DNA from: Ptychodera flava
Lineage: Eukaryota; Hemichordata; Enteropneusta; Ptychoderidae
Reading direction: 5' to 3'
NCBI RefSeq assembly: GCF_041260155.1
Contig: NC_091928.1
Span: 46,602,137-46,666,136 of the forward strand
DNA length: 64,000 bases
Shown here one piece after another: positions 17,578 to 62,255 of this stretch; the first letter of the stretch is position 1, and every line of letters starts with the position of its first letter. The notes under the pieces were generated by a model, which made no database searches, had not been told where the DNA came from, and worked only from the letters and a program-made list of their open reading frames with translations. A program made the position numbers and the translations under genes.

Positions 17578-20500
17578 TTATTTTGATTCATTTTCTTCAA
17601 GACAGTCTGACTTGCCCTTCTCGGCATCATCACTAGGACCGACGTCTTGTCCACTTCGTCGACACAGGCAGACAATTACAACAACCACCACAGCAATTAT
17701 TACCGAGCACGCAACTGCAACCGTTGTAACAGGGAGCGTGTGATTGGTCGTGGTAGCAGTGTAGATTTTACTTAGATATAAGTTGTTGGCTGAAAATTCA
17801 AAAGAAATCATAGGCTGTAAACTGAGCTTACAGTGGGTTTCAAGTCGAGTTATAAAGCAGAAGCTTTTAAAATATGCGCTTTCAACTACTGCTTCTATTT
17901 CTGAACACAGAGTGTAGGAATTTGTTCTATTCAACAAACAGCATCTTTCAAAAGAAACTATATCAGTGATATGCAGATTAGTGAGTGGATCTAATGTTGT
18001 CTGGTTTCGCACCGTTGACGAAGTCATCCAATACGAGTACACTGTGAAACAAAGAAGGCTTCCTGTAAAAAGATAAGGAGATCAGAAACTGTTTCGTTTA
18101 TTTACCTGTTGTAGCGTTCGAGGGCGCCCATCCGTTTGTCCTGGTCTGTTTATCTCTCGACGGGTCTTCCGTCGTCGCCAAACTGTGTACACCATGTACA
18201 GGATTGGGCATAAATATAGTCTCGTATGTTTCGGCTTGCTTTGCTGTGGATTAAGACGTGAATGTGATATCAGTGCACCGATATCAATTGCCAATAGTTT
18301 AAAATTGCTGTTTCATTGATCAAAATTTCAAACAGATTAGAAATTAGATATTAGGGACATAGGTGTACTGCTTGGCGGGATTCCTGAGTTTGTTTTGGTT
18401 AGCTAAAATCCAAGTGTGGACGGTTGATTTCTTGCAACCTACCAGGTCGATGTGGGTTTCGACTTAAAATCTTTTTTATAGACAGAACGAGGGAATTCCA
18501 CGCAGCCGTACGTACGGAGGATGGAAAATGATCAACGCTTTTCGTTTGTGGGTTTCAGTGAATCAAAGTTACATTGACCTGCGGCGCACAAAAATGTATA
18601 TACATGCGAAGTAAGCTGTTACAAAACGCACATGCGCACTTAGGTATTATTATCGTTATCAATGAAGTGACACTTACAAATTATACTTTGTATGAAGTGG
18701 CCGGTTTCTGAGAGAGCTCCAAAGATTTAGAATTTCGCATTGTTGATGGCCAATAATACCAGTCATTGGCCCACACCTGGGCGCTGATTGGTTACTACCC
18801 TGTCACTTGTCGTGCTTATAAGAATTAAATAGCTGCATTGACAAGCATTGATTACCTTCAGCGAATTCGACGCCATAGATGAATGACTTGGGCTGGCAGG
18901 ACTTGGTCGCTCTATCGTAGATACGCGTAGGATCAGTGCAATGCTGTCCACATTTAGTGTTCTGTGCTCCGATACACTGAGATATCACTTGAAGACCGTC
19001 CTGGCAGATACTACATGGTCTGCAGTAGTAGTATCTGTAACGAAATGAACATTAGTCAATAGTGTATGCACCATTACGCATGCTCAACAGGGACACAGAC
19101 ACAACTATGGTATAATGGCAAAGGAGCGGGCGTAAGAATGAAGTCAGTAAGCATATATCAGTACGTTGGGTAGCTATGCTCACAGGGACTTGCTGACAAG
19201 TGTTTATTAGCGACATCTATCCAAAATTTCACAGGGCGAACAAGTCACATCATAAAGATGCTCGTACACATACATAAAAAACTACAACCGTGAACCACAT
19301 AATGGTATTATCACCGTTGCCATTTTTATCTCCCTCGCGATGATGTTGATGCTGCTGCTGATGATGATAAGGATGGTGGTGGTGGTGATGATTAATGAAG
19401 ATGAAGATGATAATGACGATAGCTATAATAATTATGATAGTGATATAAAAATGATACAAATGGAGAAGACAATGATGATGATGATGATGATGATGATGAT
19501 GATGATGATGATGATGATGATGGCGATGGTGGTTATGTGGTAGCGGTGATAATGTTGATTGCTCAAATTGTTTTCTCAGAACATGAAAAGTCGTCAGGAC
19601 TTTTAACCAGTATAGTGTAATACTAGTTCGGATGCACAGGTGAAGAAGGCCACCATATACTGTAAGTTTTGGCAAAGTGCCAGCAAGGTAAAAATGTTAA
19701 TGACGTTTTGAAAAGTCTCATGACTCGCTTAGGACGCACAATTTGAATTCCGATACGATTAAAAAGAACCATCTTTAAGGAGTTCGTTTGCATTATTCCA
19801 AATTGAGGCTGCCAAAATTGAGGCTATTTTAGTTGTCAATCATTACCTTATCAGGTCATTGATATCCGAGGGAACGCCCACATCAATGCTAATGAAAGCC
19901 ATCTACAAGTTTCACACGATTTGCGCGCGAATATTAGCATACCTAAACTTTGCTAATTAGAATAAGTATCATGGCTATTGCAGCCTGATTGGTCAATATC
20001 CATCATGACTACTCGATGATGGTAATTGAGCACCCACCTTAAGCATGCTTTTCACGTGCAAATGGTGTTGCCTAGATCACGTGACTTTAATGTTTATAAA
20101 CAAACGCCATGTGACTGATCATGAATTCTGTTGCCGGTAACCCACGTTATCTGTGGCGTAGTAAAATAACTAAGCATGTATTGTCCATAATTTTGATTTA
20201 GTTTCACAGATTTGCAAAAAAAAAACTACGAAGCCGAAGAATTCAGAATAACGTCAGCTACGTCAAAACCATCCATTTGCGGCTGTGGTCAGGTTAAATT
20301 TCAAATTCAAGCGAGGTACTTAATCTTGTAGTCGACCGAAAATATTACGTAGATCATTAAAACTTTGATTCCCATCACAAAGTCGCGTTTTTTTCAGAAA
20401 TCACAGTTAAATGCCATTAAAAAGGATACAGGGCATTTGTATAGCAACAACAAAAAAGTTGACAATGAACTTGATCGTCTTTACTGACCTCGTTTTTCCT

Positions 20501-59903: not shown

Positions 59904-62255
59904 ATGATGGTCGTGTACTTGGTGTTGACCTCTTGCCTGGCGATGGCTGCCGCCTTAACAACCGAGCAATATGTCCGCGATGACGTGGTTCTCTGTCCAC
60001 GGGGATCATACCTCTCAAAACTGGTAGGCGGAACCGATACTGGGAAAGACTACAGTAGTCCTGGCCAGGCTGTGGGAACAGCGACTCCCGTCCCCCGTGG
60101 CGCGTATGTCTGCCGGCCGTGCAGCTTCTGCGCGATCGGCGCCGTCGTCCTGTCTCCCTGCACGTCTGACGCAGACACGGTCTGCGGAGACTGCGAGCTG
60201 AGAGATCACGTCGTAGATGTGGAATCGAACACCTGCCGTCCCAGGTCAGCGATATCCGAGGGTAAACAAGACGACGAGGCGGACAGAGCGCCAAGTTCAC
60301 AACCGCACAAACATGGCGAAGCAGACGATTGCCAGCACCACGATCAGGATGCAGCTTTTCATGTCTCCGAAACCAGCGTGGATGCTTTGTTCATCGCATC
60401 CGCAACGCTGTTTGCTGTAGTGCTTGCTGTTTCGGTTATTCTGGCCACCGTCGCTCTTGTTGCAAAATTGAAATATCCGAAGGTGAAACGGAATACAGGT
60501 ATGCCTACCATCCCTAGATCGATCTGTTCAATAGTAAGGTAAAAATATGGCGTCTCATTTTTTACTTTGTCGAAAACATATCCACAGTGACATGACACGC
60601 GGTCATTTCCAAGAATTCCAATCACGTGACCACACTGCCATTGCCATGCTGTTGTAGGCAAGTGAAGCATCGTGCTATCTGATGAAACAGTATGTCTTCC
60701 TGCAGCCGTTTTCGCATGTTTTCGTTCAGTATTCCACAACTCGCAAGCGAAGTCTGAGTGATGTAGTGGACGCGATGCAGAGGTTGGAGAGGTTATCGTC
60801 TACAGTGGCATGAAATTGACGAATTGGCGTAGTACAATTTGAGCAGACTTGAAAGCTATCCTATTCCTCCAACAGGCATTGATCATCTAGCATGACAGAT
60901 GTTGGATAGACTTACACATTCAGGCATCTAATACTATAATACTCAGTATTCATTTTACCAATATGTCTATTACTTAGCATTGTTTTGGAATGCAATAGAT
61001 ACATGTATCCACGTACCTCAATTGTGCACTTTGAACTTGTACATTTTGAGGTCAGAGTGTTACCCTTATTTCATGATCATCAACCCTTCACGTGAGAGAG
61101 AAAAAAATGAAGACATAAACATCACGTGAAAATTGAATGGACCCACAGCCAAATGAAGCCATTGTTCTTTCACCCGGGGCAGCCGACCGGCCGATTTTCA
61201 GAACGTCTGACCAGAGGAGTTTTGATATGCAAATACAACTACAACGTCTCCTGAACAAAATTACAATTTGGAAGAGAGAGAAAGCTGTTCGCAACTACCC
61301 TTTCTTCGATCAGTTTTTTCCTCCTTACTCTCAACAAGCAACCACCGCTTCCCCTCTTTCACCTGGAAAAATGCTCACTGCCCCCTCTGGATAACAACCC
61401 CCACCTGCTCTCTTTGCATGTGCGTCCTCCCCATCGGTAACCCCAAAACAACGTAGCCGTACTCCTTGACAGTTAACTATGCTGTTTTTTTAGGCAAGAG
61501 TATAAATGTACCAGTGACAGAATAAAATCTTGTCCGCCCAACCGGCAAGAATAAATCTCTTGCGAACAATATTTTGACCACACAACAGCTTTGTTGGCCA
61601 TCCCTCTTTCATGCCCTAGAATGTTAAAGGGACAAAGTTGCAAAATTGTCAAGTTCTATCGGTTATTTTCATTTCATGGAAGCTGTTATCCCGTTCTGCT
61701 TACGAAAACATGTTGAATTATCAATTATCAGAGCTCAACTCACACCTTGCATATATACACATGTAAAATGCTGATGATGTAATTCCTGGTACGTTACTAA
61801 CTTAAATTACGTCGTCTGAGCATTTATTGGTAAATCTACAAGTATGTAGGAATTGAGATCTGACAACTTAGTTTAGCATGTTTCAGTGAGCAGAACATGA
61901 ACAATTGCTTATATGAAAAAATAAATTATTTTAAAATTTCATCCTTTCAGCGCCATATTTGTTCGGAGCTGTCAGCAGACGACAGGATTTTCCCGCTTAA
62001 TCCAACAACCGCAGTAATTTATGCAAACTACTTGCTTCGACTATCCTAGGTTTGTTGCATCTCGTGTTATAATTAACATAAGTTACAAATGTTCATTGAC
62101 CAACGACTTCTATTTTCTTGACAGGCCGAAATCTGCCTAAGAAGATTCCCGCCCTAACAACAAGTCACAAAGACAGCGTCAAGAATTCAGGAAACGAGAA
62201 GACAGGTCACGTGAATGAATGTTACAAAGATGATGAAGATGTAAAACTAATCTGA
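59904..62255 (+). CDS. TNFR-like receptor F (2 exons, 241 aa)
   Basis: Exon 1 59904-60498 (donor ACAG|GTATGC, phase 1), exon 2 62125-62255 (acceptor cttgacag). A signal peptide at about 1-18 (VVYLVLTSCLAMAAAL) precedes a linker with C31. The single TNFR cysteine-rich domain spans C70-x2-C-x2-C-x9-C-x7-C-x2-C-x13-C111 (YVCRPCSFC ... DTVCGDC). A His/Asp-rich stalk follows, then a membrane helix at about 162-187 and a 54-residue basic-then-acidic tail ending DVKLI. The tail shares RNLP-KIPA and GHVN--YK with receptor E. No death domain or clear TRAF motif is seen. Intact over its full length, unlike E. AATAAA at 62303-62308, 48 bp after the stop. Signal peptide, domain and helix are in one exon, in contrast with A-D. 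Confidence 0.9.
60499..62124. other. Intron of receptor F
   Basis: 1.6 kb; no gene or repeat recognised. Frames at 61137-61394 and on the minus strand at 60359-60739 (which overlaps exon 1) are shadows or chance. Confidence 0.6.

What the first reader, a model, noticed from the sequence alone, without database searches (positions are those of the whole stretch)
17578..62255. Cluster of six minimal TNF-receptor-like genes
Six type-I membrane proteins of about 210-270 residues each carry essentially one TNFR cysteine-rich domain with the fixed spacing C-x2-C-x2-C-x9-C-x7-C-x2-4-C-x12-13-C, one membrane helix and a 27-54-residue tail. Known TNFR members usually have two or more such domains. No death domain is visible in any of them. 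Four lie in tandem on one strand and two on the other. This looks like a local expansion of short, possibly adaptor or decoy, receptors.
Basis: partly seen in the sequence, partly recalled or inferred. Interest (0 to 1): 0.75.

Follow-up and report, generated by a model that had tools for sequence, protein, structure and literature searches.

The report
Six small TNF-receptor-like genes
A stretch of DNA, probably from an invertebrate animal, carries six neighbouring genes for small cell-surface proteins with one TNF-receptor-type cysteine domain and no recognisable death-signalling part, a local gene family of a kind already known from other invertebrates.

Summary
The cysteine spacing occurs six times, four on the minus and two on the plus strand, and never in 200 random sequences. 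All six exons match Pfam TNFR_c6; sequence searches point to solved TNF receptors. I rebuilt six type-I membrane proteins of 212-266 residues with GT-AG sites; the outer stop codons lie at 17578 and 62255, the finding's own limits. Differences between the copies compared fall most often at third codon positions, as expected of coding exons.

Corrections: four of six models are intact as read. Gene 3 is open only if its stalk exon is skipped. Gene 5 has a frame break between signal peptide and domain; a 62-base intron would bridge it, but the skipped stretch still resembles coding sequence. Each domain is one full CRD followed by half of a second.

No death domain or TRAF-binding consensus was found in the six models. 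Genes 2 and 3 share similar heads, diverged tails, and a T-x-V PDZ-ligand-like end. Single-CRD receptors and receptors lacking death domains are already known, so this is an ordinary local expansion. Decoy or PDZ-anchored function is inferred.

The parts
17578..20736 (-). Gene 1, 4 exons (20489-20736; 18856-19034; 18106-18243; 17578-17789), 258 aa
   Evidence: GT-AG junctions, phases 2,1,1; CRD exon TNFR_c6 E 3.4e-6. Start of the last exon is a choice between two acceptors seen.
23211..26029 (-). Gene 2, 4 exons (25791-26029; 24017-24189; 23703-23861; 23211-23440), 266 aa, C-terminus ETRV
   Evidence: CRD exon TNFR_c6 E 2.7e-7
31230..34357 (-). Gene 3, exons 34122-34357; 32657-32829; 31230-31465 (214 aa, C-terminus ETHV) if the stalk exon 31705-31859 is skipped; that exon does not keep the frame
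   Evidence: TNFR_c6 E 1.9e-6 for the exon, 2.2e-8 for the joined model
37975..42253 (-). Gene 4, 4 exons (41985-42253; 39659-39810; 39021-39089; 37975-38279), 264 aa
   Evidence: CRD exon TNFR_c6 E 1e-7
44503..47080 (+). Gene 5, exons 44503-44621; 44684-45081; 46959-47080 (212 aa); the 62-nt intron 44622-44683 is doubtful, a frame break is likelier
   Evidence: TNFR_c6 E 3.5e-8
59904..62255 (+). Gene 6, 2 exons (59904-60498 with signal peptide, CRD, stalk and membrane helix; 62125-62255 tail), 241 aa
   Evidence: TNFR_c6 E 4.6e-8; structure model of the first exon
52511..52639 (-). Possible degenerate remnant of a seventh CRD exon (weak)
   Evidence: blastp E 0.003 and 0.006 to genes 2 and 3; family HMM E 0.33; no support at DNA level

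Best explanation
The cluster is a local expansion of TNF-receptor-superfamily genes in an unidentified organism, most likely an invertebrate animal. Each codes for a type-I membrane protein with one complete CRD (its first cysteine lies in the preceding exon in genes 1-4) plus the opening half-module of a second CRD, then a stalk, one membrane helix and a short tail in which no death domain or TRAF-binding consensus was found. Shown: sequence membership, architecture of the predicted proteins, coding constraint in the pairs tested, duplication of genes 2 and 3. Inferred: the single CRD binds a trimeric TNF-type ligand close to the membrane, and because the tails lack known signalling domains the receptors act mainly as ligand-competing (decoy or modulating) receptors. 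Genes 2 and 3 are in addition anchored to PDZ scaffold proteins through their T-x-V ends. About 0.9 likely for family membership, about 0.4 for the decoy or modulator mechanism.
Against: No transcripts. No ligand or binding test. Tails could signal through other motifs: genes 5 and 6 have N-x-x-Y, and gene 6 also a Y-x-x-V and a dileucine-like motif. Genes 3 and 5 may be pseudogenes, alleles or assembly errors. The dN/dS values are simple counts; the exon 4 alignment is poor (32% identity). Gene 1 does not reach the Pfam gathering score. Two T-x-V ends can occur by chance.
Confidence: 0.75

Rival explanations
1. They are signalling receptors, not decoys: single-CRD receptors like Wengen and Grindelwald that signal through short-tail motifs or partner proteins (for example PDZ scaffolds for genes 2 and 3, an N-x-x-Y tail motif for genes 5 and 6).
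For: Single-CRD Drosophila receptors signal through JNK (PMC6684607 passages); Grindelwald works together with VELI (PMC12345355 passage). Genes 5 and 6 share a tail exon with GRNLPxKIPA and GHVNxxYK and a membrane helix identical at 24 of 32 positions, against 21 of 45 in the CRD, 14 of 37 in the stalk and 17 of 48 in the tail. Genes 2 and 3 keep E-T-x-V despite 24 of 74 identity in the last exon.
Against: No TRAF consensus, no death domain found; short tails, 20-49 residues by the hydropathy cut (27-54 as the finding counts them).
Confidence: 0.35
2. Part of the cluster is decaying: genes 3 and 5 (and the 52.5 kb fragment) are pseudogenes, so that the working set is genes 1, 2, 4 and 6.
For: Stalk exon of gene 3 does not keep the frame; frame break in gene 5, with the stretch that an intron would remove still resembling gene 6 coding sequence (13-residue match reached by 14 of 2000 shuffles); weak fragment at 52511-52639.
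Against: Gene 3 exons 1, 2 and 4 are open, exons 1 and 2 show dN/dS of 0.27 and 0.29 against gene 2, and the stalk exon is phase 1-1 in genes 1, 2 and 4, so skipping keeps the frame. Assembly error cannot be excluded.
Confidence: 0.35
3. The cysteine exons belong to another small cysteine-rich family and only mimic the TNFR spacing.
Against: 6 of 6 TNFR_c6 matches, PDB sequence matches almost only to TNF receptors, same in the fold comparison, plus N-terminal and single later hydrophobic region.
Confidence: 0.03

Closest known systems
p75NTR (TNFRSF16) CRD3 and DR5 (TNFRSF10B) CRDs
   Same: Best sequence matches; the printed p75NTR CRD3 alignment has the same C-x2-C-x2-C-x9-C-x7-C spacing followed by the start of the next CRD
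   Different: Those receptors have several CRDs (one search shows four p75NTR stretches) and a death domain (recalled); here one full CRD and a half, short tail, no death domain found
Drosophila Wengen and Grindelwald
   Same: Single CRD (PMC6684607 passages); Grindelwald acts with the polarity protein VELI (PMC12345355 passage; VELI is LIN7, a PDZ protein, partly recalled), comparable with the T-x-V ends of genes 2 and 3
   Different: Two divergent fly genes, not a six-gene cluster; the Grindelwald CRD has 8 conserved cysteines (PMC11377715 passage). No sequence comparison was made here, and that Grindelwald uses a T-x-V end was not seen in any passage
TNFRs lacking death domains in expanded invertebrate sets (oyster; amphioxus with 36 TNFRSF genes; coral with 40)
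   Same: Large lineage-specific sets (PMC12843592 passages); five oyster TNFRs without death domain respond to Vibrio (PMC4346834 passage)
   Different: Sequences not compared; whether those sets include single-CRD tandem clusters was not established

Membership tests
TNF receptor superfamily | Extracellular TNFR cysteine-rich domain | tested here: met
   TNFR_c6 6 of 6; gathering score passed by 4 of 6 exons and 4 of 6 full models, gene 1 in neither; PDB profile search
TNF receptor superfamily | Six cysteines per CRD | tested here: met
   C2-C6 in 6 of 6; C1 precedes them in genes 1-4 (exon 1) and 6; in gene 5 C1 lies in the stretch that the 62-nt intron model removes, so the gene 5 model as joined lacks it
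TNF receptor superfamily | Type-I membrane protein: signal peptide and one membrane helix | tested here: met
   Hydropathy scan only, 6 of 6 models; helix in the gene 6 model; no dedicated signal-peptide predictor was run
TNF receptor superfamily | Binding of a TNF-family trimer | not testable with these tools
   needs binding assay
Death receptors (subgroup) | Cytoplasmic death domain | tested here: not met
   none in 6 of 6 models at E up to 0.5; alternative exons not fully scanned
TRAF-binding TNF receptors (subgroup) | TRAF2 or TRAF6 consensus in the tail (motifs recalled) | tested here: not met
   0 of 6
Decoy TNF receptors (functional class) | Binds ligand without signalling | not testable with these tools
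   only the lack of known signalling motifs was seen
PDZ-ligand membrane proteins (class I) | C-terminal [S/T]-x-[V/I/L] (motif recalled) | tested here: met
   genes 2 (ETRV) and 3 (ETHV), 2 of 6; binding not tested

The most novel reading that the evidence does not exclude
Genes 2 and 3 form a 'similar head, different tail' pair: ectodomain exons kept alike (36 of 49 and 46 of 57 residues) while the membrane and tail exon diverged beyond DNA recognition (24 of 74 residues), yet both end in a PDZ ligand. This would be single-CRD TNF receptors outside arthropods coupled to polarity scaffolds, as Grindelwald is linked to VELI in flies, with one ligand read out through different tails.
Probability: 0.15. 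Interest if true: 0.5.

Novelty: new member of a known kind. Interest (0 to 1): 0.3.

Why it matters
What invertebrate TNF receptors without death domains do is listed as an open question (PMC4979521, part 1). A compact set of six minimal receptors, with similar heads and different tails in one pair, is a convenient system for testing decoy action against tail-coupled signalling. Otherwise it adds one more case to known lineage-specific expansions.

Tried and rejected
Whole-genome search: no genome is held for this window, so the number of related genes elsewhere and the species are unknown.

Seventh CRD at 52511-52639: protein-level hint, HMM E 0.33, no DNA-level support: for genes 1 to 4, 95, 292, 392 and 60 of 500 shuffles scored as high. 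Left as possible.

62-nt intron in gene 5: gives an open frame with a phase 2 junction like genes 1-4, but would remove the first CRD cysteine, and the removed stretch resembles gene 6. Kept as a doubtful model.

Three other matches to the loose cysteine pattern: two had no TNFR_c6 match, one (37 aa) was not scanned.

Pfam scan of other ORFs: 3, 4, 10. Found a reverse transcriptase fragment and a sub-threshold PIRT match, nothing from TNF signalling.

Literature: 7 paper searches. None of the titles and abstract starts that were listed describes this cluster; the lists are capped and this is no proof that it is unpublished. Amphioxus paper PMC2493400 is not held.

Phylogeny with named deuterostome receptors was not done: no such sequences were at hand, and PMC11377715 (passage) reports that CRDs are too short and divergent to give reliable orthology between distant phyla. 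Only the six CRDs of the window were treed.

Full report
What was checked. The finding claims six short TNF-receptor-like genes between 17578 and 62255. In six-frame translation the cysteine pattern occurs exactly six times, four on the minus and two on the plus strand, and not once in 200 random sequences with the same dinucleotide transitions. All six exons match Pfam TNFR_c6 with E from 3.4e-6 to 3.5e-8; four of six pass the curated score. With full models again six of six match and four of six pass; gene 1 is below the cut-off both times.

Gene models. Exons were joined by eye from GT-AG sites and reading phase and translated. Genes 1-4 (minus strand) share one plan: exon 1 with signal peptide and a C-x10/11-C-x-C stretch, a phase 2 intron, the CRD exon, a phase 1 intron, a stalk exon (phase 1-1 in genes 1, 2 and 4), and an exon with membrane helix and tail. 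Genes 5 and 6 (plus strand) differ: in gene 6 one exon holds everything up to the membrane helix, and a second exon holds the tail. The tail exons of genes 5 and 6 are related (GRNLPxKIPA ... GHVNxxYK). Lengths are 258, 266, 214, 264, 212 and 241 residues, each with an N-terminal and one later hydrophobic region. The outer stop codons fall at 17578 and 62255, as in the finding.

Two caveats. The stalk exon of gene 3 does not keep the frame; skipping it gives an open 214-residue protein. In gene 5 the signal peptide frame and the CRD frame differ. An intron of 62 nt would bridge them, but the removed stretch contains CQEGSFLFKL, resembling CPRGSYLSKL of gene 6; a match as good was reached by 14 of 2000 shuffles. 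A frame break (real or of assembly) is therefore likelier than an intron.

Coding constraint. Between genes 2 and 3, dN/dS is 0.27 in exon 1 and 0.29 in exon 2, and 0.34 in exon 4, where the alignment is poor. The third codon position is the one most often changed in all seven comparisons made (20 of 41 differences in exon 1, 12 of 24 in exon 2). Of the other four comparisons (genes 5 versus 6, two exons; gene 1 versus genes 2 and 4), three have saturated synonymous sites and give no ratio; the tail exon of genes 5 and 6 gives 0.17 at a dS of 3.53, which is too high to trust.

Tails. No death domain is found in six of six models at E up to 0.5. No TRAF2 or TRAF6 consensus (motifs recalled) occurs in six of six tails; gene 5 has an N-x-x-Y motif, gene 6 has N-x-x-Y, Y-x-x-V and a dileucine-like motif. 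Genes 2 and 3 end in ETRV and ETHV, class I PDZ-ligand-like. Their heads are alike (36 of 49 mature exon 1 residues, 46 of 57 in the CRD exon), their last exons are not (24 of 74). At DNA level similarity was found for exons 1 to 3, a 35-base piece of the first intron, and upstream stretches, but not for exon 4 at E up to 0.001. An old unequal exchange or gene conversion is possible; this is inference. Genes 5 and 6 instead keep the membrane helix best (24 of 32, against 21 of 45 in the CRD), though hydrophobic stretches are easily alike.

History. The unrooted CRD tree puts genes 2 and 3 together (support 0.974), joined by gene 1 (0.856) and then gene 4 (0.870), with genes 5 and 6 on the other side. 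That fits tandem duplication on the minus strand and a separate pair on the plus strand.

Mechanism. Best supported: small ligand-binding receptors close to the membrane that compete for or modulate TNF-type ligands, two of them possibly held by PDZ scaffolds. Ligand binding, decoy action and PDZ binding are inferred. The main rival is signalling through other tail motifs, as Drosophila single-CRD receptors do signal (PMC6684607 passages) and Grindelwald acts with VELI (PMC12345355 passage).

Novelty. Single-CRD receptors are known, large invertebrate TNFRSF sets are known (36 in amphioxus, 40 in a coral; PMC12843592 passages), and oyster TNFRs lacking death domains respond to bacteria (PMC4346834 passage). 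One paper calls the TNFSF/TNFRSF system restricted to metazoans, another reports CRD proteins also in choanoflagellates, plants and bacteria (PMC4979521 part 2); an animal source is therefore likely, not proven, and the species was not established. I file this as a new member of a known kind, with low to moderate interest.

Noticed in passing
window 2-7301: Satellite-like tandem arrays with a 107-bp unit (2-2902, 26 copies, 87% matches; 5564-7301, about 16 copies).
   Followed up: no
window 8652-11540: Further tandem arrays, about 153-155-bp units (8652-8993, 9024-9792) and 226-bp units (10384-11540).
   Followed up: no
window 54293-56745, plus strand: Long ORFs between genes 5 and 6 that look like a broken non-LTR retrotransposon; one of them, 54876-55598, has a reverse transcriptase match below the curated score (E 8e-5).
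   Followed up: partly
window 25145-25309, minus strand: Short stretch in the first intron of gene 2 similar to the C-terminal end of the ORF at 56035-56742 (E 0.003).
   Followed up: no
window 47990-48382, minus strand: ORF with a sub-threshold Pfam PIRT match (E 2.3e-4, 21.4 bits against a cut-off of 30.6); may be only a hydrophobic stretch.
   Followed up: no
window 27826-29598 versus 35600-37124: Upstream DNA of genes 2 and 3 is 70.6% and 72.8% identical over two stretches of about 500 bases, so the duplicated unit extends well beyond the genes.
   Followed up: partly
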